The notes beneath the pieces are model-generated. The model saw only the letters and a list, made by a program, of their open reading frames with translations, was not told the DNA's origin and searched no databases. This document shows positions 36,278-51,796 of a DNA stretch of 64,000 nucleotides, one piece after another. Position numbers and translations under genes: made by a program. The number at the start of each line of letters is the position of its first letter. Position 1 is the first letter of the stretch. The stretch is from Ornithinimicrobium tianjinense (GTDB taxonomy: Bacteria > Actinomycetota > Actinomycetes > Actinomycetales > Dermatophilaceae), in NCBI RefSeq assembly GCF_014636495.1, contig NZ_BMEM01000001.1:356195-420194 (forward strand), in the 5' to 3' direction.

Positions 36278-37108
36278 TCAGCGCGGAGTGTCCGCCTCGC
36301 TCACCGTGCTCACCGCGCACACCGCCCCGGCCGCCGACCGGGACTCGGCGCCGCGCTCCAGGCCGTCCTGGCCGGGCACGACGGTGAAGGTCTGCGGCCC
36401 GACCATCGGCGAGACGAGCCGGTAGCCGAACGTCCGACCGACCAGCGAGATCCCCTCGCGGCGCAGGTGGTCGCCCATCATCAGCGCCTGCAGCGGGCCG
36501 TGGATCACCAGACCGTCATACCCCTCGCTCGGCACGTAGCCGAGGTCGTAGTGGATCCGGTGCGTGTTGTAGGTGAGCGCGGAGAACCGGAAGAGCATCC
36601 GCTCGTCGACGTCGAGGCGCAGCGTCGGGCCGGCCGGCGGAGCGGGAGGCTCGGGTGCGTGCGGCAGCGCACCCGTCCCCGGTGCGCGGTAGACGATGTC
36701 CTGCTCCTCGCGGACCGCCAGCTCGCCGCCCTGCGTGATCTGCTGCAGCACGGTGACGAAGGTCAGGGGCCCGGTCCGGCCCTCCTTCTCCACCGTCCTG
36801 GCGATCGAGGTGACCTTCGTCGCCTCCGTGCCGATGACCAGGGGCCGGTATGTCGTCACGCGCCCGCCCGCGAACATGCGCCTGCGTCCGGGGCCGGGCG
36901 GGGCGGGGATGCCGCTGGTCGGGTGGCCGTCGGTGCCGAGGTCGCTCTGCCGGCGGCGGTCGAGGAGGTACATCCAGTGCCACAGGGGCGGCACCGGGTC
37001 ACCTGCGCCGTAGGGCACCTCGATGTCCAGCATCGCCGCGAGAGACTCGACCGGCTCTGCGGCGATGACCTCGGTCCTCGTCGTGGTCGTGGGGTTGGTG
37101 TCGGTCAT
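36278..37108 (-). CDS. MaoC/FAS1-type enoyl-CoA hydratase (itaconyl-CoA hydratase candidate)
   Basis: This 276-residue double-hotdog hydratase has an N-terminal FAS1-like dehydratase half with LWHWMYLLDRR, GRRRMFAGGRVTTYRPL and TFVTVLQQI. The C-terminal half carries the hydratase-2 motif in NTHRIHYDLGYVPSEGYDGLVIHGPLQ (catalytic Asp and His). This architecture is shared by mesaconyl-C4-CoA hydratase and the itaconyl-CoA hydratases of itaconate operons. ATG 37108 overlaps the CitE-like stop (TGATG). As last gene of the catabolic unit it would hydrate itaconyl- or mesaconyl-CoA to citramalyl-CoA, the lyase substrate. The step is inferred from family and context. Confidence 0.85.
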   Translation of the reverse strand: MTDTNPTTTTRTEVIAAEPVESLAAMLDIEVPYGAGDPVPPLWHWMYLLDRRRQSDLGTDGHPTSGIPAPPGPGRRRMFAGGRVTTYRPLVIGTEATKVTSIARTVEKEGRTGPLTFVTVLQQITQGGELAVREEQDIVYRAPGTGALPHAPEPPAPPAGPTLRLDVDERMLFRFSALTYNTHRIHYDLGYVPSEGYDGLVIHGPLQALMMGDHLRREGISLVGRTFGYRLVSPMVGPQTFTVVPGQDGLERGAESRSAAGAVCAVSTVSEADTPR

Positions 37109-37926
37109 CAGCGGTCCTTCCGTCGCAGCACGTCGCGCGCCCGCGCGATCACGGGCGCGTCCACCATGTCGCCGTCGACCCGCACGGCGCCGCCGTCGGT
37201 GTCGCTGACGGCGGACAGCACCTTCTCCGCCCAGGCGACCTCGTCGGAGGAGGGCCGGTAGGCGGCGTGCGTCCCCTCGACCTGGCGCGGGTGGATGAGC
37301 AGCTTGCCCGTGAACCCCAGCTCCCGGGCGTGCGCGAGGTCCTCGGCGAGCACGGCCGGGTCGTCGAGGGTGACGGTGACCCCGTCGACCGGGCCGGGCA
37401 GCCCGGCGCCGCGGGAGGCCAGCACGAGGGTCGAGCGACCGTGCAGCATGGCGGTGCGGCCGTTGTCGGCGCCCAGGTCGACGGCGTAGTCGAGGTGGCC
37501 GAAGGCCAGCCGAGCCACTCCCTCGGCGCGCGCCAGCTCGGCGGCGCGCAGCATCCCGGCGGCCGACTCCACCAGCGCCACGACCGGGACGCCGCACCGC
37601 GCGGAGACCGCGTCGGCCAGGGCAGGGTCGTCGGCCTTGGGCAGCACGACGGCGACCAGGCCGGACGCGCCGGCCAGGGCGGCCACGTCGTCCTCGTGCT
37701 CGGGGCTGCCGGCGGCGTTGACCCGGACGCAGGCCGAGCCTCCGTCGGTGAGCCACGCCACCACCGCGTCGCGTGCGGCGCGCTTGTGCTCGGCCACGAC
37801 GGCGTCCTCGAGGTCGACGATCACGAGGTCGGCGCCGGCGGCCGCGGCCTTGTCGAAGCGCTCCGGCCGGTCGCCGGGCACGAAGAGGAACGACCGCGCG
37901 CCCTGCACCTGCTCGAGCGACGTCAT
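37108..37926 (-). CDS. CitE-type HpcH/HpaI lyase (citramalyl-CoA lyase candidate)
   Basis: The 272-residue TIM-barrel protein has CitE family landmarks: RSFLFVPGDRPERFDKA, VIVDLEDAVVAEHK (metal-binding acidic residues), VRVNAAGSPEHEDD, VALVESAAGML and FGHLDYAVDLGAD. The late KLLIHPRQVEGTHAAYRPS is also typical. Such stand-alone CitE proteins cleave malyl-, beta-methylmalyl- or citramalyl-CoA. With a CoA-transferase and a hydratase alongside, citramalyl-CoA cleavage to pyruvate and acetyl-CoA is the best guess. ATG 37926 overlaps the acyl-CoA dehydrogenase stop (ATGA). Confidence 0.87.
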   Translation of the reverse strand: MTSLEQVQGARSFLFVPGDRPERFDKAAAAGADLVIVDLEDAVVAEHKRAARDAVVAWLTDGGSACVRVNAAGSPEHEDDVAALAGASGLVAVVLPKADDPALADAVSARCGVPVVALVESAAGMLRAAELARAEGVARLAFGHLDYAVDLGADNGRTAMLHGRSTLVLASRGAGLPGPVDGVTVTLDDPAVLAEDLAHARELGFTGKLLIHPRQVEGTHAAYRPSSDEVAWAEKVLSAVSDTDGGAVRVDGDMVDAPVIARARDVLRRKDR

Positions 37927-39110
37927 ACCGGGTCCACGTTCCCGCGCTTGACGAGCTGGCGCGCGATGACGTTCTTCTGGATCTCGTTGGTGCCCTCGCC
38001 CACGATCATGAGCGGGGCGTCGCGGAAGTAGCGCTCGACGTCGAACTCGGTGGAGTAGCCGTAGCCGCCGTGCACGCGGATCGCGTCGAGCGCGATCTGC
38101 ATACCGACCTCGGAGGCGAACAGCTTGGCCATCCCGGCCTCCATGTCCGCGCGCTGACCGGCGTCGAAGGCGCGCGCCGCGTGCAGGGTGAGCTGCCGGG
38201 CGGCCACCAGCTTGGTCGCCATCTCGGCGAGGTAGTTGCCGATCGACTGGTGCTTCCAGATCGGCACCCCGAAGGCCTCGCGCTCCTGCGCGTAGCGCAA
38301 CGAGTCCTCGAGAGCCGCGCGGCCCACCCCGAGGGCCCGCGACGCGACCTGCAGCCGGCCGACCTCCAGGCCCTTCATCATCTGGGCGAAGCCGGCACCC
38401 TCGGCGTCGCCGAGCAGGTTGGCGACCGGCACGCGCATGTCGTCGAAGGCGATCTCGCAGGACTCGACGCCCTTGTAGCCGAGCTTGGGCAGGTCGCGCG
38501 AGAGGGTGAACCCGGGCAGGCCGGGCTCGTCGCCGCCGTCCTTCTCGACGAGGATGATCGAGACCCCCTTGTGCCGCGGCTGCGCCTCCGGGTCCGTCTT
38601 GCACATGAGGGCGATGAGCCCCGCCTTGCGGGCGTTGGTGATCCACGTCTTGGAGCCGCTGATGACGTAGTCGTCGCCGTCCCGGCGCGCGACGGTGCGC
38701 ATCGCCTGCAGGTCCGAGCCGCCGCCCGGCTCGGTGAGCGCCATGGTGGCGCGCAGCTCACCAGTGGCCATCCGCGGCAGGTAGCGGTCCTTCTGCTCCT
38801 GGGTGCCGTAGGCCAGGATCAGCTTGGCCACGACCGTGTGCCCGCCCATCGCGCCGGCCAGGCTCATCCAGCCGCGCGAGAGCTCCTCGGTCACCAAGCA
38901 GTAGGCCGGCAGCGACACGGCGACGTCGCCCCACGGCTCGGGGATCGCCAGCCCGAAGATCCCCATCTGCTTCATCGCGTCGATGAGCTCCTCGGGGTAG
39001 GTGTTGGCGTGCTCGAGCTCGTTGACGACCGGCTTGACCTGCTCGTCGACGAACTCGCGCACCAGGCGGACGATCTCGACCTCGTCCTCGGAGAGCAGCT
39101 CGGTGGTCAT
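37923..39110 (-). CDS. Acyl-CoA dehydrogenase
   Basis: This 395-residue flavoprotein shows MALTEPGGGSDLQAM and GSKTWITNA (FAD and substrate loop), KLGYKGVESCEIAFDDMRVP, and VHGGYGYSTEFDVERYFRDA, where the glutamate is the probable catalytic base. In a pathway with mesaconyl- or itaconyl-CoA it could oxidise methylsuccinyl-CoA, as Mcd does in the ethylmalonyl-CoA pathway. An acyl-CoA dehydrogenase of unclear role also occurs in known itaconate loci. ATG 39110 follows GAAAGGAA. It is the third gene of the five-gene catabolic unit. Confidence 0.92.
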   Translation of the reverse strand: MTTELLSEDEVEIVRLVREFVDEQVKPVVNELEHANTYPEELIDAMKQMGIFGLAIPEPWGDVAVSLPAYCLVTEELSRGWMSLAGAMGGHTVVAKLILAYGTQEQKDRYLPRMATGELRATMALTEPGGGSDLQAMRTVARRDGDDYVISGSKTWITNARKAGLIALMCKTDPEAQPRHKGVSIILVEKDGGDEPGLPGFTLSRDLPKLGYKGVESCEIAFDDMRVPVANLLGDAEGAGFAQMMKGLEVGRLQVASRALGVGRAALEDSLRYAQEREAFGVPIWKHQSIGNYLAEMATKLVAARQLTLHAARAFDAGQRADMEAGMAKLFASEVGMQIALDAIRVHGGYGYSTEFDVERYFRDAPLMIVGEGTNEIQKNVIARQLVKRGNVDPV

Positions 39111-39133
39111 GGCGTTCCTTTCGCAGAGGGGGA

Positions 39134-39169
39134 GGTATGGCGTGGTGCCGGTCAGCGACGACCGGCACC
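39134..39169 (-). terminator. Hairpin at the 3' end of the MmgE/PrpD gene
   Basis: GGTGCCGGTC (39144-39153) pairs perfectly with GACCGGCACC (39160-39169) around six bases, overlapping the last codons and stop of the MmgE/PrpD gene. The 20 bases 39134-39153 match the left arm of the 20-bp hairpin at 41691-41736 at 18 of 20 positions. It could attenuate transcription into the acyl-CoA dehydrogenase gene. Confidence 0.6.
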
Positions 39170-40420
39170 CAGCTGCGTGGACAGGAGGGCAGCGCCGCTG
39201 GCCCAGGTGATCTCGTCGGGGGTCAGCCCCTCGACGCCGCCCAGGTCCAGGCAGTCGACCACCTTGGCGGACATCTCGTCGGCGGTCGGCGGCCTGCGCG
39301 GCGAGCCCGGGGGCAGATCCAGCGAGCCGCGGCGGGTCGTGCCGTCGGCCAGGTCGACCTCGACGTCGACGGCACCGTCGAGCAGGCCGGCGCCGCCGCC
39401 CTCGGTGAGCGTGACCTGCGTGAGGCCGACGAGCCTGCGGGCGTCCTCCCGGGCGACCGCCTCGTCGTCGAAGGCCCAGAAGCCGGAGTGGCGGTCGAGG
39501 AGGGCGGTGGCCGCGGCATACTCCAGGCTGAACTTGCCCTCCAGGCCCGTGCTCGGGTCGTGGTGGACGAGCGGGGTGACGGTGCCGCGCGGCGTGGTGA
39601 GCCGGATGGCGGTGACCTGGTCGGCGGTCACCGGGCCGCCGACCGTCTCGCGCAGCGCACCGATGGGGCGCTGGAGCGCGTAGCAGGCGGGGTAGACCTT
39701 CACGGCCAGCCCGTCCGGGACGGCCGCCGGGTCGCCGGCCGGGTCGACCAGGAGGGGGTGGCCCGGGTCGCCGCCGACGAGGGTGAGCCAGGCGTCGAGC
39801 GCACGGGGGTCGGCGGTGGCGCCGGCCGCGGCCAGCTGGGCCGCGCGGACGCCGGCCGCGGCCGCCATCCCGACCTGGATGCTCTTGGCGTCGGTGCCGA
39901 ACGCGCGCTGGACCCCGCCGGCGGCCGGCACGGTGAGCGCGACGGCGGTCGCGAGCTGCTCGGCGTCCAGGCCCAGCGCGATGCCGGCGACGACCGCGGC
40001 GGCGGGGGCGCCCGCCGTCGTCGTGGCGTGCCAGCCGCTCGTGTAGTGCCCCCAGCCGAGCGCCGTGCCGAGCCGGGCCATGACGCCCGCCCCGGCCAGG
40101 TAGGCGCGGGCGGCGAGGTCGGCGTCGTCCGGCGCGACGGCCAGCGCGACCGGGACGCAGACCGTGGAGATGTGCGTGGTCGAGGGCATGTGGAGGTCGT
40201 CGAAGTCGATGACGTGGGCGAGCAGCGCCCAGCGGGCGGCGTCGCCGGCCAGCGGCCCGGAGGTCTCGGCGAGCGCGTCGGCGACCGGACGGATCGGGTG
40301 CGTGGCCGCGGCCAGCGCGACGGCGACCGTGTCCAGCAGGCTGCGGTCGGCGAGCGCGAGGTCCTCGGCGGTGGGCTCGAGGGCCAGGGCCCAGTCGGCC
40401 AGGGCGCGGGCGATGGTCAT
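39152..40420 (-). CDS. MmgE/PrpD family protein
   Basis: This 422-residue protein belongs to the family of 2-methylcitrate dehydratase, iminodisuccinate epimerase and cis-aconitate decarboxylase. Family features include HVIDFDDLHMPSTTHIS (His/Asp active-site region), GWHATTTAGAPAAAV, QRAFGTDAKSIQVGMAA, KVYPACYALQRPIGA and EGKFSLEYAAATALL. An MmgE/PrpD gene of unknown role is also found in itaconate-degradation loci. Here it might prepare or isomerise the C5/C6 acid. ATG 40420 overlaps the CoA-transferase stop (ATGA). Confidence 0.88.
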   Translation of the reverse strand: MTIARALADWALALEPTAEDLALADRSLLDTVAVALAAATHPIRPVADALAETSGPLAGDAARWALLAHVIDFDDLHMPSTTHISTVCVPVALAVAPDDADLAARAYLAGAGVMARLGTALGWGHYTSGWHATTTAGAPAAAVVAGIALGLDAEQLATAVALTVPAAGGVQRAFGTDAKSIQVGMAAAAGVRAAQLAAAGATADPRALDAWLTLVGGDPGHPLLVDPAGDPAAVPDGLAVKVYPACYALQRPIGALRETVGGPVTADQVTAIRLTTPRGTVTPLVHHDPSTGLEGKFSLEYAAATALLDRHSGFWAFDDEAVAREDARRLVGLTQVTLTEGGGAGLLDGAVDVEVDLADGTTRRGSLDLPPGSPRRPPTADEMSAKVVDCLDLGGVEGLTPDEITWASGAALLSTQLGAGRR

Positions 40421-41604
40421 GGCGTCCCTTCGTGGTCGTGCGCGACGGTGCGGGCGTCCGGGTCGGGGTGCAGGCCGAGCTCGGCCAGGACGGCGTCGGT
40501 GTGCTGGCCGGCCGTCGGGATCGGGCCCATCACCGGGGTGGCGCCCTCCAGGGTCGCCGGGGGGATGAGCGCGCGCAGGGGGCCGACGGGGGAGTCGTAC
40601 TCGCGCCACCGGTCGCGGGCGGCGAGCTGGGGGTGCTCGGCGAAGGAGTGCAGGTCGCGCAGGAGCGCGTTGGCGATGCCGACCTCCTCCAGCAGCTCGG
40701 CGGCCTGCTCGGCCGTCCTGCCGGCGAGAGCGCGCTCGACCTCGGCGGTGAGGTCGGTGAGGTTGTCCACGCGCAGGGAGTTGCGCTCGAACCGGGGGTC
40801 GGTGGCGAGGTCGGCGCGGCCCAGCACGCGCTCGCAGAACGTCGCCCACTCGCGCTCGTTCTGGATGCCGAGGAAGACCTGCTCGCCGTCGCCGCAGGTG
40901 AACGGGCCGTACGGGGCGATCGCGGCGTGGCGGGCCCCCGAGCGGGAGGGCGCGGCGCCGCCGTACATCGCGTAGTTGAGCGGGAAGCCCATCCACTCCC
41001 CGAGCGCCTCGAGCATGGAGACCTCCAGCGTGGCGCCCTCGCCGGTGCGGCCGCGCTGGATCAGGGCGGTGAGGACCCCGCTGTAGGCGTACATGCCGGC
41101 GGCGATGTCCGCGACCGAGATGCCGACCTTCGCCGGCTCCTCGGGGGTGCCGGTGATCGAGACGAGGCCGGCCTCGCACTGCACGAGCAGGTCGTAGGCC
41201 TTCTTGGTGGTGTACGGACCGCCGGGGCCGTAGCCGGAGATCGAGACGTGGACCAGCCGCGGGTTGAGCGCCCGGAGCTCGGCCGCGCCGAGGCCCAGGC
41301 GCTCGGCCGCGCCCGGTGCGAGGTTCTGCACGAACACGTCGGCGCGGGAGACCAGCTCGCGGACCGCGCGCAGGCCCAGGTCGGTCTTGAGGTCGAGGGC
41401 CACCGACTCCTTGGAGCGGTTGAGCCAGACGAAGTGGCTGGCCATCCCCTTGACCGTCTCGTCGTAGCCGCGGGCGAAGTCGCCGTCGCCGGGACGCTCG
41501 ACCTTGATGACCCGGGCGCCGAGGTCGGCGAGCTGGCGGGTGGCGAAGGGGGCCGCCACGGCCTGCTCGAGGGAGACGACGGTGATCCCGTCCAGAGGGT
41601 TCAT
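40417..41604 (-). CDS. CaiB/BaiF-family CoA-transferase (C5-dicarboxylate activating candidate)
   Basis: This 395-residue family III CoA-transferase has GITVVSLEQAVAAPFATRQLADLGARVIKVE at its N-terminus, FVWLNRSKESVALDLKT, FVQNLAPGAAERLG and HVSISGYGPGGPYTTKKAYDLLVQ. The catalytic aspartate is probably that of VGISVADIAAGMYA near residue 170. It would move CoA from succinyl- or acetyl-CoA to the imported dicarboxylate. ATG 41604 sits six bases after a TAGGCT hexamer, so it begins a separate, probably leaderless unit of five overlapping catabolic genes downstream of the TRAP genes. Confidence 0.9.
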   Translation of the reverse strand: MNPLDGITVVSLEQAVAAPFATRQLADLGARVIKVERPGDGDFARGYDETVKGMASHFVWLNRSKESVALDLKTDLGLRAVRELVSRADVFVQNLAPGAAERLGLGAAELRALNPRLVHVSISGYGPGGPYTTKKAYDLLVQCEAGLVSITGTPEEPAKVGISVADIAAGMYAYSGVLTALIQRGRTGEGATLEVSMLEALGEWMGFPLNYAMYGGAAPSRSGARHAAIAPYGPFTCGDGEQVFLGIQNEREWATFCERVLGRADLATDPRFERNSLRVDNLTDLTAEVERALAGRTAEQAAELLEEVGIANALLRDLHSFAEHPQLAARDRWREYDSPVGPLRALIPPATLEGATPVMGPIPTAGQHTDAVLAELGLHPDPDARTVAHDHEGTP

Positions 41605-41610
41605 GGACCT

Positions 41611-41616
41611 AGCCTA
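41611..41616 (-). promoter_or_regulatory. -10 hexamer TAGGCT of the CoA-transferase operon
   Basis: On the minus strand TAGGCT ends six bases before ATG 41604. It matches the hexamer before glmS and marks a second promoter between the TRAP genes and the catabolic genes. Confidence 0.55.
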
Positions 41617-41690
41617 TCGAAAGTGAGTGCCAGATGACAAAGGGCCGTACATTAAGTCGTGCACGGGCTGCGGCCAGGAGGGCGAGGTGA

Positions 41691-41736
41691 GGTATGCGGT
41701 GGTGCCGGTCCGGGGAGACCGGCACCACCGCATACC
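41691..41736. terminator. Perfect 20-bp stem hairpin between dctM and the CoA-transferase gene
   Basis: Arms 41691-41710 and 41717-41736 are perfectly complementary over 20 bases with a 6-base loop, starting four bases after the dctM stop on the minus strand. It should end the TRAP transcript, dividing the cluster into a transport unit and a catabolic unit. The arm is nearly the same sequence as 39134-39153 and as a coding stretch at 57480-57499, and includes the GTATG core of the recurrent octamer. Confidence 0.8.
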
Positions 41737-41740
41737 CGCG

Positions 41741-43021
41741 CTAGGGGACGAGGGAGAGGGCGATGAACGGGATGTAGGTGACGATCAGCAGCGCGGTGAG
41801 CAGCACGCCCGCGCTGGGCAGCGCGGCCTTGGCCACCTGCAGCACGCTCATCCCGGACAGCCCGGAAGCGACGAACAGGTTGAGCCCGAGCGGCGGCGTG
41901 ATCATGCCGATCTCGAGGTTCATCACCATGATGATGCCGAGGTGCACCGGGTCGACCCCCATGTCGAGGGCGACCGGCAGCAGGATCGGCGCCAGGATCA
42001 GCAGCGCGCTGCTCGTCTCCATGAAGCAGCCCACGATGAGCAGCAGCAGGTTGACGATGAGCAGGAACTGCCAGGGCTGCAGGTTCATCGCGGCGATGCC
42101 CTCGGTCACCTGCAGCGGGATCCGCTCGGCGGCCAGGACGAAGGTGAACAGGATGCCGTTGGCGATGATGAACATGATCATCGCCGAGGTCTTGGCCGAG
42201 CCGAGCAGCACCTTGCCGAGGTCCTTGATCTTCAGCTCGCGGTAGATGACCATCGAGACCAGCAGGCTGTAGGCCACGGACGCGGCCGCCGCCTCCGTGG
42301 GGGTGAAGAAGCCGCCGTAGATGCCGCCCAGCACGATGACCGGCAGCATGAGCGCCAGGACCGCGTCCCGCAGCGCCCGGCGCCGGAAGCCCTTGGGCCG
42401 CTCCTCGCCGCCGCTGGAGCCGTAGTTGTTGCGGCGCGAGACCCAGACCGCCATCCCGAGGAGCATGAGGCCGGCCATCACGCCGGGCAGGATGCCCGCG
42501 ACGAAGAGGTCGCCGATGCTGGTCTCGGTCGCGATGCCGTAGACGATCAGCGGGATCGAGGGCGGGATGAGGATGCCCAGCGAGCCCGAGGTCGCGATGA
42601 GACCGGTGGAGAACTGCTTGGGGTAGCCGGCCCGGATCATCGCCGGGATCAGCAGCGTGCCGACCGCCACCACGGTCGCCGGCGAGGAGCCCGACACCGC
42701 CGCGAAGAACATGCACGCCAGCACGGCGGTCATCGCCATGCCGCCGCGGTACTGCCCGACGAGGGCGTTGCCGAAGTCGGTCAGCCGTCGGCTGATCCCA
42801 CCCCTCGTCATGATGTTGGCCGCCAGGACGAAGAAGGGGATGGCCATCAGCGGGAAGCTGTTCAGCGCGTTGAAGAGCCGCTCGACCACCTGCGTGAGCG
42901 GGATGGTCGTGAACCAGTACAGGTAGACGAAGGAGGTCAGGCCCAGTGCCATCGCGATCGGCGTGGACGTGAACAGCAGCAGTGCCAGGATCACGACGAG
43001 GGCGATCACCTCGGTGCTCAT
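41741..43021 (-). CDS. dctM: TRAP transporter large membrane subunit DctM
   Basis: This 426-residue subunit is the sodium-driven transport channel of a TRAP dicarboxylate transporter. It has about twelve membrane segments with family hallmarks FPLMAIPFFVLAANIM, FFAAVSGSSPATVVAVGTLLIPAM, SGSLGILIPPSIPLIVYG, FFTPTEAAA and GMITPPLGLNLFVASG. ATG 43021 overlaps the dctQ stop (ATGA). A strong terminator hairpin lies just after it. TRAP transporters are less common in high-GC actinobacteria than in proteobacteria. Confidence 0.95.
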   Translation of the reverse strand: MSTEVIALVVILALLLFTSTPIAMALGLTSFVYLYWFTTIPLTQVVERLFNALNSFPLMAIPFFVLAANIMTRGGISRRLTDFGNALVGQYRGGMAMTAVLACMFFAAVSGSSPATVVAVGTLLIPAMIRAGYPKQFSTGLIATSGSLGILIPPSIPLIVYGIATETSIGDLFVAGILPGVMAGLMLLGMAVWVSRRNNYGSSGGEERPKGFRRRALRDAVLALMLPVIVLGGIYGGFFTPTEAAAASVAYSLLVSMVIYRELKIKDLGKVLLGSAKTSAMIMFIIANGILFTFVLAAERIPLQVTEGIAAMNLQPWQFLLIVNLLLLIVGCFMETSSALLILAPILLPVALDMGVDPVHLGIIMVMNLEIGMITPPLGLNLFVASGLSGMSVLQVAKAALPSAGVLLTALLIVTYIPFIALSLVP

Positions 43022-43617
43022 CGGCCGTCCTCCCTGGTCTGGTCGCGGTCGGCGCGGGCGATCGCCTCGTGCGAGGCCTTGATCTCCTCGAAGGTCAGGC
43101 CGGTGGCCTCGGCCTCGGCGGCCAGCACCTCCTCGGGGCTCTCGCCCACCGTGCCGTAGCGGGCGGTGCGGTAGAGCATCTCGATGGCCCGCAGGAACAT
43201 CAGGGTCATCCCGATGGGCACCGCGGCCTCGACCACCCACAGCGGCAGCTTGAGGACCGGGGTGACCGTGGTGCGCGAGAATGGCTCGAGGAGCAGCAGC
43301 CAGCCCAGGTAGGACATGATCCCCAGGTAGACGAGGGTGACCACCCCCGCCACGAGCGCCAGCCACTTCTTGCCGCGCTCCTTGAAGAAGACGCCGAGGA
43401 TGTCGACGCTGACGTGCTCGTTGTGCCGCAGCGTGATGACGGCGCCCAGGAAGGTGGAGAAGATGATCAGGTAGATCACCGACTCCTCCGTCCAGAACCA
43501 GGCGGCTCCGAACTGGCGGATGATGATGTTGACGATCGAGATCAGGGCCGCCAGGCCGAGGGCGCCGGCGGCCAGCACGTTCTCGACGGTGGTGAGCGCG
43601 CGATCGAGTTGCTTCAT
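43018..43617 (-). CDS. dctQ: TRAP transporter small membrane subunit DctQ
   Basis: This 199-residue membrane protein has four hydrophobic segments (about residues 14-36, 47-66, 85-110 and 125-148). It carries the DctQ pattern WTEESVIYLIIFSTFLGAVITLRHNEHVSVDIL. The C-terminus extends about 45 residues past the last segment with an acidic, helical tail (ESPEEVLAAEAEATGLTFEE), longer than the usual DctQ. It overlaps dctM by four bases and is separated from dctP by a hairpin. Confidence 0.9.
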   Translation of the reverse strand: MKQLDRALTTVENVLAAGALGLAALISIVNIIIRQFGAAWFWTEESVIYLIIFSTFLGAVITLRHNEHVSVDILGVFFKERGKKWLALVAGVVTLVYLGIMSYLGWLLLLEPFSRTTVTPVLKLPLWVVEAAVPIGMTLMFLRAIEMLYRTARYGTVGESPEEVLAAEAEATGLTFEEIKASHEAIARADRDQTREDGR

Positions 43618-43634
43618 CGTTCTCCTTGGGCAGG

Positions 43635-43664
43635 GGCCGGGGCGGCGCGATGACCGCCCCGGCC
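43635..43664 (-). promoter_or_regulatory. Intercistronic hairpin between dctP and dctQ
   Basis: GGCCGGGGCGG (43635-43645) pairs perfectly with CCGCCCCGGCC (43654-43664) over 11 bases around an 8-base loop. Hairpins at this position in transporter operons usually protect or partly terminate the upstream message, giving more binding protein than membrane subunits. Confidence 0.65.
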
Positions 43665-43677
43665 GGGTGGGGAGGAC

Positions 43678-44730
43678 TCAGCCCTGGTTGGCGAGCAGCT
43701 CGTCGATGATCTCGCTGCCGATCAGCTCGCGGTACTCCTCGTAGAGGGAGGGGACGACGACGTCCTTGAAGGCCTGACGCTGCTCGTCGGTCCAGACGTT
43801 GATCTCGGTCGAGCCCTCCTCCTCGATCGCCTTCTTGGACGCGTCGTTGATCGAGGTGACGTTGTCACGGTTGTAGGTCGAGGCCTCCTCGGCGACCTCC
43901 ACCAGCGTGTCCTGCAGGTCGGTAGGCAGGCTGTCGAAGAAGTCCGTGTTGACCACGAGGATGTAGCCGATGTAGCCGTGGTTGGACTCGGCGATGTTGC
44001 TCTGCACCGTGTGCATCTTCTGCGACTCGATGTTGGAGTAGGTGTTCTCGCCGCCGTCGATGACACCCTGCTGGAGTGCGGAGTAGACCTCGGCGAAGGC
44101 GATCGCCTCGGCGTGGCCGCCCCAGGCCTCGATCTGCGACTTCAGGACGTCGGAGGGCTGGATCCGGTACTTCTTGCCCTTCATGTCCTCGGGCTTCTCG
44201 GTGAGGTTGTTGGAGTGGATCTGCTTCATCCCGGAGTCCCACAGGCCCAGGACCTTCATCTTCTTGGCCTCGAGGTCGGGGTTGGCGAAGATCGCCTTGC
44301 CCACCTCGGTGTCCGGGGCGGCGACGGTGGGGATGTCCTCCGGGCCGTCGAAGAGGAACGGCAGGTCAAGGACCTGCAGCGCCGGCGCGACCGTGGTGAA
44401 CTTCGCGGAGGCGGGGGCCAGCATCTGGACGGAGTTCTGCTGGATGGCCTGCATCTCGTCCTTGTCGCCGTAGAGCGAGGAGTTGGAGTAGACCTCGACG
44501 TCGATGCGACCGTCGGTGCGCTTCTCCAGCTCCTCCTCGAACCAGAGGGCCGCCGCGCCCTTGGGGGTGGTGTCCGTGGTGACGTGGGAGAACTTCAGCG
44601 TGAACGTCTCCTCGCCGTCGGCGGACCCGCCGGCCGAGTCGCCGCCGCGGGCGCCGCCGCAGCCGGCCAGCGTGAGGGAGGCGACGGCGACCAGGGCCGC
44701 CAGCGTGCGCAGGGAGTTGCGGTTGCTCAT
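43678..44730 (-). CDS. dctP: TRAP transporter substrate-binding protein DctP
   Basis: This 350-residue extracytoplasmic solute receptor has a signal with lipobox SLTLAGC and so is probably a lipoprotein. Family features are LKFSHVTTDTTPKGAAALWFEEELEKRTDG, KKYRIQPSDVLKSQIEAWGG, where the arginine usually holds the substrate carboxylate, and GGENTYSNIESQKM. It should bind a dicarboxylate. ATG 44730 overlaps the regulator's stop codon (ATGA), so it is translated from the gntR message. The C-terminal end is typical in length. Confidence 0.94.
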   Translation of the reverse strand: MSNRNSLRTLAALVAVASLTLAGCGGARGGDSAGGSADGEETFTLKFSHVTTDTTPKGAAALWFEEELEKRTDGRIDVEVYSNSSLYGDKDEMQAIQQNSVQMLAPASAKFTTVAPALQVLDLPFLFDGPEDIPTVAAPDTEVGKAIFANPDLEAKKMKVLGLWDSGMKQIHSNNLTEKPEDMKGKKYRIQPSDVLKSQIEAWGGHAEAIAFAEVYSALQQGVIDGGENTYSNIESQKMHTVQSNIAESNHGYIGYILVVNTDFFDSLPTDLQDTLVEVAEEASTYNRDNVTSINDASKKAIEEEGSTEINVWTDEQRQAFKDVVVPSLYEEYRELIGSEIIDELLANQG

Positions 44731-45527
44731 TCGGGTGTTCCTTTCGGGGGGTGGGGTGCCGCCGTCAGGGACGGCGACGGCATGCTCCGGCGGCCCAGAC
44801 GGAGCCGGTGCGTGTAGTGCTCGGGCAGGAAGTCGGAGACCGCCCACTCGACGGGTCGGCCACTGGCGTCGACGTAGAGCCGCTCGACGTGCAGGAGGGG
44901 GTGGCCGACCGAACAGCCCAGCCGAGGGGCTGTCAGCTCGTCGGCGGCGCGGGCGGTCATCGACTGCTCAGCGCCGCTGATCTGGATGCCGTGGTCGGCG
45001 AGGGCGCCGATCACGGTGCGGGTGGTCTTCAGGCCGGGCTCGAGGAAGGTCGCCTCGTCCTCGAGGACCTGGCCGACCGCCAGCGGCAGGTAGACGTCGG
45101 TGGCGCAGAAGACGACGCCCTGGTGGCGGCGCACGAAGCGCATGCCGTACATCAGCCGGGTCGTCAGCTGCAGCTGAGCCGCGGCTCGGTCGTCGTAGGT
45201 GCCGGCCAGCGCCTCGACGACCTCCAGCTCGGTGTCCTCGGAGAGGGAGAGCAGGTCGTCGACGGTCTCGAAGGGACGGTGGTAGCGCAGCCGCGAGGGC
45301 GTGACGAAGGTGCCCCGGCCCGGGACGCGGTAGACCAGCCCCTCGTTGACCAGCTCGAGGTAGGCACGCCGGACGGTCTGCCGGCTCACCCGGTGCTCCT
45401 TCTCCAGCTCGCCGTCGGTGGGGAGGGGCTCGTCCTCGTCCCACGTCTGCGCGCGGATCTGCTCGCGCAGCGCCGACGCCAGACGTCGGTAGCCGGGCTG
45501 CTCGGCCCGGACGGTCGGCGGCACCAT
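44727..45527 (-). CDS. GntR-family regulator, HutC/UTRA type
   Basis: This 266-residue regulator has an N-terminal winged helix (YRRLASALREQIRAQTWDEDEPLPTDGELEKEHRVSRQTVRRAYLELVNEGLVYRVPGRGTFV) and a UTRA ligand-binding domain. UTRA signs are MRFVRRHQGVVFCATDVYLP and LLHVERLYVDASGRPVEWAVSDF. ATG 45527 follows GGGAGGG. It is the first gene of the gntR-dctPQM unit, overlapping dctP by four bases, so it probably regulates its own transcription and the divergent MFS gene in response to the imported acid or a CoA derivative. Confidence 0.92.
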   Translation of the reverse strand: MVPPTVRAEQPGYRRLASALREQIRAQTWDEDEPLPTDGELEKEHRVSRQTVRRAYLELVNEGLVYRVPGRGTFVTPSRLRYHRPFETVDDLLSLSEDTELEVVEALAGTYDDRAAAQLQLTTRLMYGMRFVRRHQGVVFCATDVYLPLAVGQVLEDEATFLEPGLKTTRTVIGALADHGIQISGAEQSMTARAADELTAPRLGCSVGHPLLHVERLYVDASGRPVEWAVSDFLPEHYTHRLRLGRRSMPSPSLTAAPHPPKGTPE

Positions 45528-45556
45528 GCGCCCTCCCTTCGTTGGGTCCGGGGAAC

Positions 45557-45586
45557 AGCATCGCAAATGGCACAACATTTCGTCAA
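45557..45586 (-). promoter_or_regulatory. Candidate gntR-dctPQM promoter
   Basis: On the minus strand a TTGACG -35-like element (45581-45586) lies 18 bases from GATGCT (45557-45562), about 30 bases before ATG 45527. The surrounding stretch is AT-richer than average. Confidence 0.4.
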
Positions 45587-45602
45587 TGGTGTGTCGATAA
45601 GG

Positions 45603-45620
45603 TGTCTGCGTGACCAGACA
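45603..45620. promoter_or_regulatory. Palindrome between divergent gntR and MFS genes
   Basis: TGTCTG-cgtgac-CAGACA is a perfect 6+6+6 inverted repeat just upstream of the MFS start and downstream of the -35-like element of gntR. Its symmetry, size and position suit a GntR-type operator that controls both directions. Confidence 0.5.
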
Positions 45621-45629
45621 GGATCAGGC

Positions 45630-46952
45630 GTGAGCGGCCGGGGAGGTGCGGCCTCCGGGGTGAGCAGCGGCCGGCTGATGCTCGGCGCCAGCGCGCTGAC
45701 GACCCTCGGCGCCATCCCGCCGTTCCTGCTCGGCTCGCAGGCCGTGCTCATGATGCGCGAGCTGGACTTCGGGGCCGCGGGGCTCGGGCTCGCGGTGAGC
45801 GTCTTCTTCGCGGTCGCCGCGGCCGTGACGATCCTCCTCGGCTCCCTCATCGCCCGGTGGAGCGGTCCTGGCGGTCTGCTGGTCGGCGGCTCGCTCGTCG
45901 CCGTCGGCGGGCTCGGGGTCGTCTGGTTCGTGCACGGCTGGCCGGTGCTCGTGGGCGCCATGGCCGTCCTGGGCGCGGCGAACGCCGTGTGCCAGGGCGT
46001 CTCCAACCGCACCGTGGCGACCGTGCTCCCGCCCGACCGGCGCGGGCTGGGCTTCGGGCTCAAGCAGAGCGCCGTGCCCGCGGCGATCATGCTCGGCGGC
46101 CTCGCGGTCCCGACGACGACGGCCGTCTTCGGATGGCGCAGCACCTTCCTGGTGACCGGGACCATCGGCGTCCTCGTCGCCCTCGCCGGCCTGGCCCCTC
46201 TGGTGGCCGGTGCTCTGCGGGGGCGCCGGGCGGCCCGGGCGGCCGAGCACCCCGTGACCGCCGCGCGCCGCGGTGACGGCGCACGGCATACCTCGGCGCC
46301 ACGGGACCACGCGCCCTGGGGACCGCTGCTGCTGTGCGGCGTGGCGATCGCCTTCGCCAGCTCCGCCGCCAACTTCCTCGGTGCCTACCTCGCGAGCTGG
46401 GCGCACGACGTGGGCCTGACGATCGGGCAGGCCGGGCTGCTCATGGCGGCGGGTTCGGGCACCTCGGTCCTCGTGCGCGTCGCGACCGGCTTCCAGGCCG
46501 ACCGGCGCTACGGCGGCAACCTGTCGGTGGTCGCGACGATGATCCTCATCGGCGCCGGCTGCCTCGCGCTGATCGGCGCGCTGCCCTCGCCGTGGGCGGT
46601 CGTGGTGTTCGGTTACCTCGGCTTCGCCCTCGGCTGGTCCTGGCCGGGCCTGATGCTGTATGCCGTCGCGCGGGTCGGGCGCGACGCCCCCACCGAGGCG
46701 TCCTCGGTGGTCCAGGCGGGCGCCTTCGTCGGCGGGGCGCTGGGCCCGGTCAGCCTGGGCCTGGTCATCTCGACGGTCGGCTTCCGGACGACCTGGTATG
46801 CCGCCGCGGCCTGCTTCCTCACCGCCGGGCTGCTCACCCTGCTGGCGCGCCGGGGCTTCCGCAAGGACCTCATCGCGCGCCCGCCGGCGGAGCCGCTCGG
46901 CTTCGGCGGCGGTCGACGGGAGCCCCGCTACACGACCCCACTGCCCGAATAG
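45630..46952 (+). CDS. MFS transporter divergent from the GntR regulator
   Basis: This ~440-residue major facilitator protein has about twelve hydrophobic segments, opening LMLGASALTTLGAIPPFLLGSQAVLMMRELDF, with CQGVSNRTVATVLPPDRRGLGFGLKQSAVPAAIML in the first half. The GLKQSAVPAA-type motif is common in cyanate/nitrate-like and organic-acid MFS proteins. GTG 45630 follows AGGA by seven bases; a second GTG at 45660 has GGGAGG upstream. It sits beside the GntR regulator with a shared control region, so it may export or import the same acid or a pathway product. Confidence 0.85.
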   Translation: MSGRGGAASGVSSGRLMLGASALTTLGAIPPFLLGSQAVLMMRELDFGAAGLGLAVSVFFAVAAAVTILLGSLIARWSGPGGLLVGGSLVAVGGLGVVWFVHGWPVLVGAMAVLGAANAVCQGVSNRTVATVLPPDRRGLGFGLKQSAVPAAIMLGGLAVPTTTAVFGWRSTFLVTGTIGVLVALAGLAPLVAGALRGRRAARAAEHPVTAARRGDGARHTSAPRDHAPWGPLLLCGVAIAFASSAANFLGAYLASWAHDVGLTIGQAGLLMAAGSGTSVLVRVATGFQADRRYGGNLSVVATMILIGAGCLALIGALPSPWAVVVFGYLGFALGWSWPGLMLYAVARVGRDAPTEASSVVQAGAFVGGALGPVSLGLVISTVGFRTTWYAAAACFLTAGLLTLLARRGFRKDLIARPPAEPLGFGGGRREPRYTTPLPE

Positions 46953-46964
46953 GCGTGGTCCATC

Positions 46965-47402
46965 ATGTGCCCCATGGAGTCCGGCAACCACGTGTCCTGG
47001 TCCAACTTCTCCCGGCACCTCGGGATCGAGCAGGTCTCCCTGGATCCGCAGCGCGCCGTCTACCGGATGCCGGTGCTCGAGCAGCACGCCAACCGCAACG
47101 GGGTCCTGCACGGGGGCGCGCTGATGTCGCTCGTCGACCAGGTCGCCGGATCGCTGGCCTTCGCCAACTGCCCGCCGGGGTCCACCAACGTCACCCTCGA
47201 GGCCAAGACCAACTTCTTCCGCTTCGCCCGGGTCGGTGACGTCGTGACTGCGGTGGCGGTGCCGCTGCACGCCGGGCGCACCACGGTGGTCGCCCAGGTC
47301 ACCACGACCCGCGGTGACGGCAAGGAGCTGTCCGCCACGATGCAGACCCAGCTGTTCATCCGGTGGGACGGCGACCCCACGGGAGCGCCGACCCAGGGCT
47401 GA
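46965..47402 (+). CDS. PaaI-type hotdog thioesterase
   Basis: This 145-residue single hotdog-domain protein has the PaaI-family motif NGVLHGGALMSLVDQVAGSLAF and later VTLEAKTNFFRFARVGD. Such enzymes release CoA from acyl-CoA or aromatic acyl-CoA. It lies 12 bases after the MFS gene and may be co-transcribed, providing a way to relieve trapped CoA when the C5-acid pathway stalls; this role is inferred. Two ATGs (46965, 46974) are possible starts. Confidence 0.85.
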   Translation: MCPMESGNHVSWSNFSRHLGIEQVSLDPQRAVYRMPVLEQHANRNGVLHGGALMSLVDQVAGSLAFANCPPGSTNVTLEAKTNFFRFARVGDVVTAVAVPLHAGRTTVVAQVTTTRGDGKELSATMQTQLFIRWDGDPTGAPTQG

Positions 47403-47525: not shown

Positions 47526-47585
47526 TGCTTTGAGCTAGGGGTGCGGCTGGGCTTGTCGGCCTCGCTGCAGAAGCACCGGCGACGG

Positions 47586-47787
47586 GTGGGACTACCGCGG
47601 GTGAGGTGCCGCCGGTGGGGCTGCCGCCGGTGGGGCTGCCGCCGGTGGGGCTGCCGCCGGTGGGATGCCGCCGGTGGGGCTGCCGCGGGTGAGGCTGCCG
47701 CCGGTGGGGATGCCGCCGGTGGGGATGCCCCGGTGGGACTACGGCCGGTGGGGCTGGCGCCGGTGGGGTTGCCGTCGGTGGGGCTAC
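47586..47787. repeat. Tandem ~15-bp repeat array, about 14 copies
   Basis: Units close to GTGGGGCTGCCGCCG repeat from about 47586 to 47787, mostly 15 bases with two 14-base units and scattered changes (GTGGGGATG, GTGAGGCTG). The array reaches the stop codon of the hydrolase gene on the minus strand. The two 14-base units break any constant reading frame, so a repeat protein is unlikely. Minisatellites like this often vary between strains. Confidence 0.88.
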
Positions 47788-48593
47788 AGCTCGAGCAGCC
47801 ACCTCGCCAGCGCCTCCGCGGTGGCGACCGGCGCCTCGGCGGGGGCGAGGTGCCCCACCCCCGGGAGCACGACCGCCTCAGCCCCGGGGACGGCGGCAGC
47901 CAGGTCCTCCTGCACCTGCGGCGGGGCGACCGGGTCGGCCGCGCCCCCGAGCGCGAGGACGGGCACCGTGATCTGACCCAGGCGGTCGCGGACGTCGTGC
48001 TGGCCGAGCGCCCCGCACACCAGCGCGTAGGACTCGTCGTCGGCCGCGCGCAGCGTGTCCAGCAGCCGGGCTGCGACGTGCGGCCCGCGCTCGAGGAAGC
48101 CGGGGGCGAACCACCGCTCGCGGGAGCCGTCGACCATCGACGCCGTGCCGTGCTCCCGCACCTGCTCGGCCCGCTCGGCCCAGCCCTCGGGCGAGCCGAG
48201 CTGGGGGCCCGAGCACACCACGGCGCTCGCGCGCACGGCGCCGGCCAGCGCGAGATGGAGCCCGGTCGCACCGCCGACGCTGACGCCCGCGTGCGTCCAC
48301 GAGCCGGGCGCGACACCGGGCGCCGCGAGAGCCACCGCGGCGACGACCGCGCCGGCCAGGTCCTGGAGGGTGAACGGCTCACGAGCGGGGGCCCCGTCCC
48401 CGTGGCCCGGGAGGTCCCACGCCAGGACGTCGACGTCGATCAGCCCGGCCAGCTCGCGCGCGCACTCCTGCCAGAGCGCGACCACACCGGTGCCGAGCGA
48501 GGGGCCCACCACCACCAGATCCCTCGCTGGGGCCGAGCCCGGCGCAGGCTTCGGGTCCGTGGGGGTGAGCCAGTGGGTCGTCAGGGTCAGCAT
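47784..48593 (-). CDS. Alpha/beta hydrolase, 3-oxoadipate enol-lactonase candidate
   Basis: The ~269-residue protein has a standard alpha/beta hydrolase layout: LVVVGPSLGTGVVALW (oxyanion region), VLAWDLPGHGDG, nucleophile elbow GVSVGGATG with the serine, VPVLALGGAADPVAP with the acid, and VVLPGVGHLAPAEAP with the histidine. It resembles PcaD/CatD enol-lactonases, the step after CatC. It is divergent from the LysR-catBAC operon. Starts at 48593 (used) and 48677 are possible. Its 3' end touches a tandem-repeat array. Confidence 0.8.
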   Translation of the reverse strand: MLTLTTHWLTPTDPKPAPGSAPARDLVVVGPSLGTGVVALWQECARELAGLIDVDVLAWDLPGHGDGAPAREPFTLQDLAGAVVAAVALAAPGVAPGSWTHAGVSVGGATGLHLALAGAVRASAVVCSGPQLGSPEGWAERAEQVREHGTASMVDGSRERWFAPGFLERGPHVAARLLDTLRAADDESYALVCGALGQHDVRDRLGQITVPVLALGGAADPVAPPQVQEDLAAAVPGAEAVVLPGVGHLAPAEAPVATAEALARWLLEL

Positions 48594-48688
48594 GCGGGTC
48601 AGTCTGGCAGTGTCCGCGCCGCCCTCCCCGGCGGCCGGCACGGTCGAGCACCCGCCGCGCAGCTCACGTGCACTCATGCCCTAGAAGA

Positions 48689-48731
48689 ATCAATCGTCCT
48701 CAACTTGTTCTTGCGCAGCCCTGCGATTGAT
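48689..48731. promoter_or_regulatory. Inverted repeat between the divergent hydrolase and LysR genes
   Basis: ATCAATCG (48689-48696) and CGATTGAT (48724-48731) are perfect inverted copies 27 bases apart in the only gap between the two divergent units. This is a plausible binding region for the LysR regulator, although the arms are farther apart than in a classical T-N11-A box. Confidence 0.5.
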
Positions 48732-48787
48732 GTCTACCGTCGATCAGACACGGCGGACTACGACGGTCCCGAGGACGGAGCGCGGCG

Positions 48788-49752: not shown

Positions 49753-49756
<4 letters not shown>
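48788..49756 (+). CDS. LysR-family regulator of the cat genes
   Basis: This 322-residue regulator has an N-terminal helix-turn-helix (LRCFLAVADTLHFGRAAEQLHLAQPAVSRTVRQLEREVGTELLTRSTRSVALTAAG). A periplasmic-binding-like effector domain follows from about residue 90. The sequence FGRAAEQLHLAQPAVSRTVRQLE is close to the CatR/BenM/PcaQ group, whose effector is often cis,cis-muconate. It overlaps catB by four bases (GTGA), an unusual in-line arrangement, since CatR genes are typically divergent from catB. The divergent partner here is the hydrolase gene. Confidence 0.9.

Positions 49757-51796
<2,040 letters not shown>

What the first reader, a model, noticed from the sequence alone, without database searches (positions are those of the whole stretch)
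36278..46952. A complete itaconate-type (C5 dicarboxylate) catabolic locus in an actinobacterium
Ten genes read as one system: GntR/UTRA regulator, TRAP receptor and two membrane subunits, CaiB-type CoA-transferase, MmgE/PrpD protein, acyl-CoA dehydrogenase, CitE-type lyase and MaoC-type hydratase on the minus strand, and a divergent MFS transporter. Established knowledge: bacterial itaconate breakdown uses a CoA-transferase, an itaconyl-CoA hydratase and a citramalyl-CoA lyase (the ict-ich-ccl or Rip system). From memory, the Pseudomonas aeruginosa locus also has MmgE/PrpD, acyl-CoA dehydrogenase and TRAP genes. Inference: this organism imports a C5 dicarboxylate and cleaves it to pyruvate and acetyl-CoA. 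Mesaconate or methylsuccinate would suit the acyl-CoA dehydrogenase equally well. A high-GC actinobacterial version with TRAP uptake is not something I know to be described.
Basis: partly seen in the sequence, partly recalled or inferred. Interest (0 to 1): 0.85.

Follow-up and report, generated by a model that had tools for sequence, protein, structure and literature searches.

The report
Actinobacterial itaconate-type dicarboxylate catabolic locus
An actinobacterium carries a gene set that very probably imports and breaks down itaconate-like five-carbon acids; its core matches the known Pseudomonas pathway, but two of its five enzymes come from different enzyme lineages, so part of the pathway seems to have been put together separately.

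Summary
The ten genes are present as described. The core is orthologous to the Pseudomonas aeruginosa itaconate pathway: CoA-transferase 57% identical to Ict, hydratase 43% to Ich, lyase 46% to Ccl; the nearest solved sequences for the last two are the P. aeruginosa enzymes. The dehydrogenase is of a FadE3 clade, has its catalytic glutamate elsewhere, and groups with the ethylmalonyl-pathway methylsuccinyl-CoA dehydrogenase. The MmgE protein forms its own clade but keeps the isomerase residues. Of 80 named Ict loci, 15 hold this pair; none holds both dehydrogenase types. One conserved operator-like element precedes gntR and caiB, and occurs nowhere else in the genome within one mismatch. Best reading: a regulated itaconate/methylsuccinate operon whose methylsuccinate arm uses separately recruited enzymes. 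No activity is shown; the substrate is unproven. New variant of a known kind.

The parts
36278..37108 (-). ich: proposed itaconyl-CoA / mesaconyl-C4-CoA hydratase (double-hotdog MaoC, FAS1-DH)
   Evidence: only two PDB sequences match at E up to 0.001: 8huc and 8khg, the latter named Itaconyl-CoA hydratase; 43% identity to the PA0878 counterpart in L020
37108..37926 (-). ccl: proposed (S)-citramalyl-CoA lyase (HpcH/CitE)
   Evidence: best PDB matches 9nzb/8khl (186 bits; sequence nearly identical to the L020 lyase) against 139 for the 6aq4 chain, Rv2498c; 46% identity to the PA0883 counterpart; only match of that protein in the own genome at E up to 0.001
37923..39110 (-). acyl-CoA dehydrogenase of the FadE3 clade, proposed methylsuccinyl-CoA dehydrogenase of another lineage than PA0879
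   Evidence: 4iv6 FadE3 668 bits, next 6es9 294 bits; tree and residues
39152..40420 (-). MmgE/PrpD protein, proposed isomerase of a substituted succinate, of another lineage than PA0881
   Evidence: 28% identity to PA0881, separate clade, catalytic residues kept in 17 of 17, fold nearest to iminodisuccinate epimerase
40417..41604 (-). ict: proposed succinyl-CoA:itaconate/methylsuccinate CoA-transferase (class III)
   Evidence: 57-58% identity to the PA0882 counterpart, which finds it as best hit in the own genome, 454 against 219 bits for the next
41638..41653 (-). operator-like element AATGTACGGCCCTTTG before caiB/ict
41691..41736 (-). perfect 20-bp inverted repeat, 6-nt loop, between dctM and caiB; possible terminator or attenuator (not listed by the T-run terminator scan)
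41741..43021 (-). TRAP large membrane subunit (DctM)
   Evidence: 49% to IctM
43018..43617 (-). TRAP small membrane subunit (DctQ)
43678..44730 (-). TRAP substrate-binding protein (DctP)
   Evidence: most carboxylate-binding residues kept
44727..45527 (-). GntR-family regulator with UTRA domain
45564..45579 (-). operator-like element AATGTTGTGCCATTTG between gntR and the MFS gene
45630..46952 (+). MFS transporter, divergent
   Evidence: also next to gntR in five sibling genomes
46965..47402 (+).
   Evidence: family name from the reading of the sequence, not scanned against Pfam; relatives near caiB in L043, L045, L046, L047

Best explanation
It is a GntR-controlled operon for uptake and breakdown of branched C5 dicarboxylates. 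Shown by sequence: close kinship of the three core enzymes to Ict, Ich and Ccl. Inferred: the TRAP system (and perhaps the MFS carrier) brings in itaconate, methylsuccinate or a like acid; Ict moves CoA from succinyl-CoA to it; Ich hydrates itaconyl-CoA or mesaconyl-C4-CoA to (S)-citramalyl-CoA; Ccl cleaves that to pyruvate and acetyl-CoA. Inferred with less certainty (see the section on the most novel reading, 0.5): the MmgE protein interconverts the two mirror forms of methylsuccinate and the FadE3-type dehydrogenase oxidises methylsuccinyl-CoA to mesaconyl-CoA, doing by other protein lineages what PA0881 and PA0879 do in Pseudomonas. The GntR regulator would repress the regulator-transporter and the catabolic promoters through one shared operator until the inducer appears. 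The confidence given is for the core pathway with such C5 acids as substrates.
For: Core: 57% (Ict), 43% (Ich), 46% (Ccl) identity to the P. aeruginosa cluster of L020; PDB matches; the Ccl and Ict of L020 find the window genes as best hits in the own genome. Linkage: same set in 5 of 30 other same-genus genomes (gene order); among the best 80 of 527 Ict relatives, 19 hold the window-type dehydrogenase, and of these 19, 18 also hold MaoC, 15 the window-type MmgE, 15 the GntR, 14 CitE. All 4 of 394 class genomes with this MmgE (own included) also have an Ict-like gene, adjacent in 3. Methylsuccinate arm: dehydrogenase groups with 6es9, the (2S)-methylsuccinyl-CoA dehydrogenase, support 98/89; Arg421 of 6es9 kept in 22 of 22 and Lys in place of Arg376 in 22 of 22 (roles from PMC5798300, passages). 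MmgE: His88, His102, Tyr148, His152, Lys202, Lys266 kept and Glu91 as Asp in 17 of 17, as in IDS epimerase (roles from PMC12290011); AlphaFold model nearest to IDS epimerase. Regulation: within one mismatch the operator pattern occurs only at these two promoters in 3.3 Mb.
Against: No activity or growth data. 6es9 sits on a long branch (1.45) and acts on the C1-CoA ester, whereas the C. necator Ict makes the C4 ester (PMC12290011). The methyl pocket Ala285 of 6es9 is Met in 22 of 22, and Arg252 is not kept. PA0879 does find the window dehydrogenase as its best hit in the own genome (32%, 183 bits; next 161, 153), so best hits alone would not separate them. 4 of 19 loci with the window-type dehydrogenase lack this MmgE (in 3 of the 4 the stretch held is short). 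MmgE conserved residues are shared across the family, so they do not name the substrate. The binding protein scores as high with DctP (224 bits) as with IctP (222), and higher with another DctP-type protein (247), and has Ile at position 234, not the Val proposed for itaconate. The lyase is below the NCBIfam RipC cut-off (138 of 375 bits). Among solved structures the CoA-transferase is nearest to one named formyl-CoA transferase (225 bits; none of the 35 matches is named an itaconate CoA-transferase). The caiB promoter of the window has a weaker -35 and right operator half than its siblings.
Confidence: 0.72

Rival explanations
1. Core pathway as above, but the dehydrogenase and MmgE serve another substituted succinate (for example a longer 2-alkyl or a hydroxylated succinate), so the main growth substrate is not itaconate or methylsuccinate.
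For: Both proteins are of other lineages than the tested ones; the methyl-pocket residue differs from 6es9; the published model of PA0881 suggests room for larger C3 groups (PMC12290011, passage).
Against: Ict and Ich are close to enzymes tested with C5 acids; the gene families match the five-enzyme Pseudomonas set one for one.
Confidence: 0.18
2. The MmgE protein is a cis-aconitate decarboxylase that makes itaconate from imported aconitate, and the rest degrades it.
For: Same superfamily; cis-aconitate decarboxylases are strong structural matches.
Against: Sequence match to the decarboxylases is weak (up to 35 bits) against 130-134 for IDS epimerase and B. subtilis IRG1; by fold IDS epimerase ranks first; the second-base tyrosine is kept, though no decarboxylase was put in that alignment.
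Confidence: 0.04
3. A general C4-dicarboxylate uptake locus beside a leucine or HMG-CoA-type breakdown module; the CitE protein is mainly an (R)-HMG-CoA lyase.
For: Rv2498c and PA0883 also cleave (R)-HMG-CoA (PMC6689899); the binding protein scores as high with DctP.
Against: No biotin carboxylase or methylcrotonyl-CoA gene among the proteins scanned (not the whole window); Ict-type CoA-transferase and Ich are present and linked.
Confidence: 0.04

Closest known systems
P. aeruginosa PA0878-PA0886 itaconate/methylsuccinate cluster (ich-mcd-VOC-msi-ict-ccl-ictPQM)
   Different: dehydrogenase and MmgE from other subfamilies (32% and 28% identity); GntR where L020 has LysR genes; no VOC gene among the cluster genes; extra MFS gene; different gene order
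Cupriavidus necator five-gene cluster with methylsuccinate isomerase and (RS)-methylsuccinyl-C4-CoA dehydrogenase (PMC12290011)
   Same: same five enzyme families
   Different: as above; that dehydrogenase family has Pro at the canonical base position and a helix-G Glu (seen here in its P. aeruginosa, C. campinensis, Variovorax, Rubrobacter and other relatives; the C. necator protein itself was not fetched)
(2S)-methylsuccinyl-CoA dehydrogenase of the ethylmalonyl-CoA pathway (6es9, PMC5798300)
   Same: canonical Glu, Arg421, Tyr375 and a basic residue at 376; sister in the tree
   Different: no N-terminal extension (395 against 551 aa), Arg252 and Ala285 not kept
M. tuberculosis itaconate dissimilation through Rv2498c (PMC6689899)
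   Same: CitE-type (S)-citramalyl-CoA lyase in an actinobacterium
   Different: window lyase is closer to the P. aeruginosa lyase than to Rv2498c (186 against 139 bits)

Membership tests
P. aeruginosa-type itaconate degradation cluster (ict-ich-ccl) | orthologous Ict | tested here: met
   57-58% identity; best hit of the L020 Ict in the own genome, 454 against 219 bits
P. aeruginosa-type itaconate degradation cluster (ict-ich-ccl) | orthologous Ich | tested here: met
   43% identity; its only two PDB matches are Ich-type chains; no whole-genome reciprocal search was run for Ich
P. aeruginosa-type itaconate degradation cluster (ict-ich-ccl) | orthologous Ccl | tested here: met
   46% identity; only match of the L020 lyase in the own genome at E up to 0.001
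P. aeruginosa-type itaconate degradation cluster (ict-ich-ccl) | conversion of itaconate to acetyl-CoA and pyruvate | not testable with these tools
   needs enzymes or growth
five-gene itaconate/methylsuccinate cluster (PMC12290011) | orthologue of (RS)-methylsuccinyl-C4-CoA dehydrogenase (PA0879) | tested here: not met
   32% identity, separate clade, base Glu elsewhere; 227 bits against 624-787 for the 16 PA0879-type proteins from which the HMM was built. Against this: it is PA0879's best hit in the own genome
five-gene itaconate/methylsuccinate cluster (PMC12290011) | orthologue of (S)-(R)-methylsuccinate isomerase (PA0881) | tested here: not met
   28% identity, separate clade; 73 bits against 818-849 for the five proteins from which my own HMM was built (the published HMM, cut-off 550, was not run). 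It is the only MmgE/PrpD gene found in the own genome
MmgE/PrpD epimerase/isomerase mechanism | six substrate residues plus second-base tyrosine | tested here: met
   7 of 7 positions in 17 of 17 (Glu91 as Asp, as in IDS epimerase)
(2S)-methylsuccinyl-CoA dehydrogenase of the ethylmalonyl-CoA pathway | three-arginine carboxylate site and Ala285 pocket | tested here: not met
   Arg421 kept, Arg376 is Lys, Arg252 and Ala285 not kept, 22 of 22
IctPQM itaconate TRAP transporter (PMC12599236) | DctP-family site with Val234 | tested here: not met
   Lys41, Lys94, Arg169, Gln171, Asn209, Asn213, Tyr236 kept; position 234 is Ile, 91 is Ala
RipC/Ccl equivalog (NCBIfam NF038242) | score over curated cut-off 375 | tested here: not met
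   138 bits; PA0883 was not run against the model
cis-aconitate decarboxylase | closest sequence and fold | tested here: inconclusive
   up to 35 bits by sequence; ranks behind IDS epimerase and B. subtilis IRG1 by fold, but with strong matches

The most novel reading that the evidence does not exclude
Actinobacteria assembled a methylsuccinate-using arm onto the shared Ict-Ich-Ccl core separately from the PA0879/PA0881 lineage (which here was seen not only in Proteobacteria but, wholly or in part, also in Rubrobacteraceae, Acidobacteriota and Thermus): a FadE3-type dehydrogenase with the canonical base, and a separate MmgE/PrpD isomerase clade, under their own GntR operator. It would be a further type of methylsuccinyl-CoA dehydrogenase and a second methylsuccinate isomerase lineage, one that a survey with a PA0881-type HMM probably does not count.
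Probability: 0.5. Interest if true: 0.65.

Novelty: new variant of a known kind. Interest (0 to 1): 0.5.

Why it matters
Itaconate is a macrophage antimicrobial and a fungal product, and its close relative methylsuccinate has only lately been tied to a dedicated bacterial degradation route (PMC12290011). The published GTDB survey places methylsuccinate isomerases almost only in Pseudomonadota (96.2%, PMC12290011). If the actinobacterial enzymes do the same work, that count misses a lineage, the trait arose twice from the same two superfamilies, and there is another dehydrogenase, with a different catalytic base, for C5 metabolism and synthetic pathways. The conserved operator gives a direct way to find the inducer. 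It would also suggest a function for some FadE3-type dehydrogenases.

Tried and rejected
Tried and rejected or unhelpful: (a) naming the substrate from the TRAP binding protein: most carboxylate contacts are kept and position 234 is Ile in the window and in seven related loci, so it does not discriminate. (b) NCBIfam names: no equivalog passes its cut-off for any of the five enzymes. (c) Consensus promoter scan: none found in 36-47.5 kb; the operator-like element was found by comparing relatives instead. (d) Phylum sample for the window-type MmgE at E up to 1e-60: 1 of 396, the own genome. In the rows shown by the searches of about 400 genomes four candidates per genome were scored, so counts are lower bounds. 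(e) Islands and transfer route were not analysed; presence in 5 of 30 other same-genus genomes only shows patchiness.

Rows and doubles: the residue count lists 16 PA0879-type rows, but PA0879 and L020 are the same protein, so 15 are distinct. L144, L145 and L146 come from contigs with the same lengths as those of L051, L032 and L033 and are probably the same genomes, so they are not independent. The core string scored was taken from the sites themselves, and the pattern was written to fit the two window sites, so what adds is the absence of a third site. The HMMs were scored on the proteins that built them. The 80 loci are the best 80 of 527; the other 447 were not seen.

Papers: PMC12290011 (text parts 1-4 of 9 and passages), PMC12599236 (parts 1-2 of 5), PMC9875883, PMC5798300, PMC6689899, PMC5592240 (passages only). 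Searches in which, judged by the listings, no paper describes this actinobacterial cluster; open-licence PMC only. Work from the 1960s on itaconate use by a Micrococcus is recalled; I saw only that listed papers hold those words.
Full report
What is there. The window lies in a 3.3-Mb, 12-contig high-GC genome (72.7% G+C over the window). The closest named relatives by the CoA-transferase are Ornithinimicrobium species at 83-84% (where records of the own or a very near genome may be left out). The ten genes of the finding are confirmed by Pfam, coordinates. Five of the eight neighbouring minus-strand pairs overlap by 1-4 bases.

Core pathway. A plasmid of P. aeruginosa carries the whole PA0878-PA0886-like cluster and served as reference (L020); its binding protein has the residues published for PA0884 at all twelve positions looked at (PMC12599236). 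Window proteins against it: CoA-transferase 57% (224 of 392 aligned residues), hydratase 43% (112 of 262), lyase 46% (123 of 267). In the Protein Data Bank the hydratase matches two distinct sequences, one named Itaconyl-CoA hydratase; the lyase matches 9nzb and 8khl best (186 bits; nearly identical to the L020 lyase), against 139 for the chain of 6aq4, which PMC6689899 gives as Rv2498c. The CoA-transferase has no match named itaconate CoA-transferase among 35 listed; the best is named formyl-CoA transferase (225 bits). The L020 Ict and Ccl each find the window gene as best hit in the own genome.

Where it departs from Pseudomonas. [quoted passage not shown] The window genes carry the same family names but have 32% and 28% identity to them. 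PA0879 still finds the window dehydrogenase as best hit in the own genome (183 bits, next 161), so the case for a different lineage rests on tree and residues. The dehydrogenase is in one clade with FadE3 (4iv6, 668 bits) and with dehydrogenases beside Ict genes in other actinobacteria (73-90%). The next reference outwards is 6es9, the (2S)-methylsuccinyl-CoA dehydrogenase of the ethylmalonyl-CoA pathway (support 98/89, but a long branch). The catalytic glutamate is at the canonical place in 22 of 22 window-type proteins and is proline in 15 of 15 distinct PA0879-type proteins, which instead have a glutamate on the aligned helix-G position in 15 of 15. A base on helix G is what is described for isovaleryl-CoA dehydrogenase (PMC5798300, passage); that the positions match is my inference. 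Arg421, one of three arginines that 6es9 is thought to use for the substrate carboxylate, is kept in 22 of 22 and is glutamate in the other type; Arg376 is lysine in 22 of 22; Arg252 and the methyl-pocket Ala285 are not kept. So a short dicarboxylyl-CoA substrate is likely, methylsuccinyl-CoA the best guess, the exact ester unsettled.

The MmgE protein falls in a clade of 18 (100/100) apart from PA0881-type isomerases. An HMM built here from five PA0881-type proteins gives those five 818-849 bits, 17 window-type proteins of related loci 45-96 bits, and the window 73; the published survey used its own HMM with a cut-off of 550, which I could not run. The residues assigned to catalysis in PA0881, including Tyr148, which the authors give as an additional base of the two isomerases, are kept in 17 of 17, with Asp in place of Glu91 as in IDS epimerase. 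The AlphaFold model (mean pLDDT 88.5) is nearest to iminodisuccinate epimerase (E 8.8e-22), then B. subtilis IRG1, cis-aconitate decarboxylases and 2-methylcitrate dehydratases. De Witt and co-workers report the same first match for PA0881 (PMC9875883, passage).

Distribution. One scan returned the best 80 of 527 confirmed Ict relatives in GTDB genomes. With the thresholds, 19 of 80 have the window-type dehydrogenase, 18 of 80 the window-type MmgE, 15 both; 14 of 80 have the PA0879-type dehydrogenase, 2 of 80 also the PA0881-type isomerase (both Rubrobacteraceae); no locus has both dehydrogenase types (0 of 80; Fisher p 0.03, not corrected for kinship); 44 of 80 have none of the four. The pair was seen in Ornithinimicrobium, Intrasporangium, Knoellia, Nocardioides and other Nocardioidaceae, Sphaerisporangium and MAGs labelled Streptomyces, Frankiales and Actinomycetota. 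The PA0879 type is not confined to Proteobacteria: here it is in Rubrobacteraceae, Acidobacteriota and a Thermus plasmid too. Ict-like genes are frequent (58 of 396 phylum genomes at E up to 1e-80; 80 of 394 class genomes at E up to 1e-120); this MmgE is rare (4 of 394 at E up to 1e-80, all four with Ict-like genes, adjacent in three). In the genus it is patchy: 5 of 30 other genomes. Many flanks are cut by contig ends, so absences are soft.

Regulation. Promoters of the window and ten related loci were compared. Before gntR an element TTGACGAAATGT-x-x-TGC-x-x-TTTG is seen in the window, its five siblings, L034 and L036, but not clearly in the three Nocardioidaceae loci. Before caiB the siblings have TTGACAAAATGT-A/G-CGGCCCTT with an inverted GGCCT-x-ACA, by eye lying between -35 and -10 boxes; in Nocardioides AX2bis (L046) it is a perfect 10-base inverted repeat with a 10-base spacer. 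The core AATGTACGGCC is matched at 9 or more of 11 bases in 16 of 22 promoter windows (7 of 11 gntR, 9 of 11 caiB) against 177 of 4400 shuffled windows; the core was taken from these sites. At caiB it starts 49-53 bases before the start codon in the window, the five siblings, L034 and L036. In the own genome AATGTNSKGCCMTTTG has two matches at up to one mismatch, both here; the reversed control has none. This ties transporter and enzymes into one regulon and is the best evidence that the TRAP substrate is the pathway substrate. A perfect 20-base inverted repeat separates dctM from caiB, so the two promoters may drive two transcripts. The caiB promoter of the window has a weaker -35 and right half-site than its siblings and no clear ribosome site; a leaderless start is possible (by eye).

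Uptake. The binding protein keeps most carboxylate-binding residues of IctP but has Ile at position 234 and Ala at 91, in the window and in seven related loci. PDB scores with IctP (222) and DctP (224) are equal, and another DctP-type protein is higher (247). It is probably a C4/C5-dicarboxylate receptor; more cannot be said.

Verdict. The new point is the dehydrogenase and MmgE of other lineages, a distribution in which the two dehydrogenase types were not found together, and a conserved operator-like element. No function has been shown. Judged by their listings, the searches of open-licence papers named under Tried and rejected hold no description of this actinobacterial variant; subscription journals were not covered.

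Noticed in passing
search listing (Prescottella equi plasmid records, not opened): 36 of 207 plasmid records with a hydratase relative are Prescottella (Rhodococcus) equi; those listed encode a protein 58-66% identical to the window hydratase, several annotated mesaconyl-C4 CoA hydratase. That these are virulence-type plasmids is recalled from their sizes. A paper search for R. equi, itaconate and virulence plasmid found no paper.
   Followed up: no
L020 (NZ_CP131792.1 706068-723198): A P. aeruginosa megaplasmid typed as conjugative carries a complete PA0878-PA0886-type itaconate/methylsuccinate cluster next to LysR genes.
   Followed up: partly
window 47784-51796: Next to the locus: an alpha/beta hydrolase, a LysR regulator, a mandelate racemase/muconate-lactonising-type enzyme and a catechol dioxygenase, probably a catechol ortho-cleavage set.
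   Followed up: partly
window 47585-47785: Tandem array of a 15-base unit, 13.6 copies.
   Followed up: no
L031 (Thermus thermophilus plasmid pAA2-2c): Ict-like gene (60%) with a PA0879-type dehydrogenase (63%), fumarase-type subunits, a CitE-type lyase and TAXI-TRAP genes: a possible mesaconate/methylsuccinate cluster.
   Followed up: no
L016, L037, L039, L041, L042: Rhodococcus, Rhodococcoides, Gordonia and Arthrobacter Ict loci carry a third MmgE clade, on the PA0881 side of the tree but only about 30% identical to it, without either dehydrogenase type in the stretch held.
   Followed up: no
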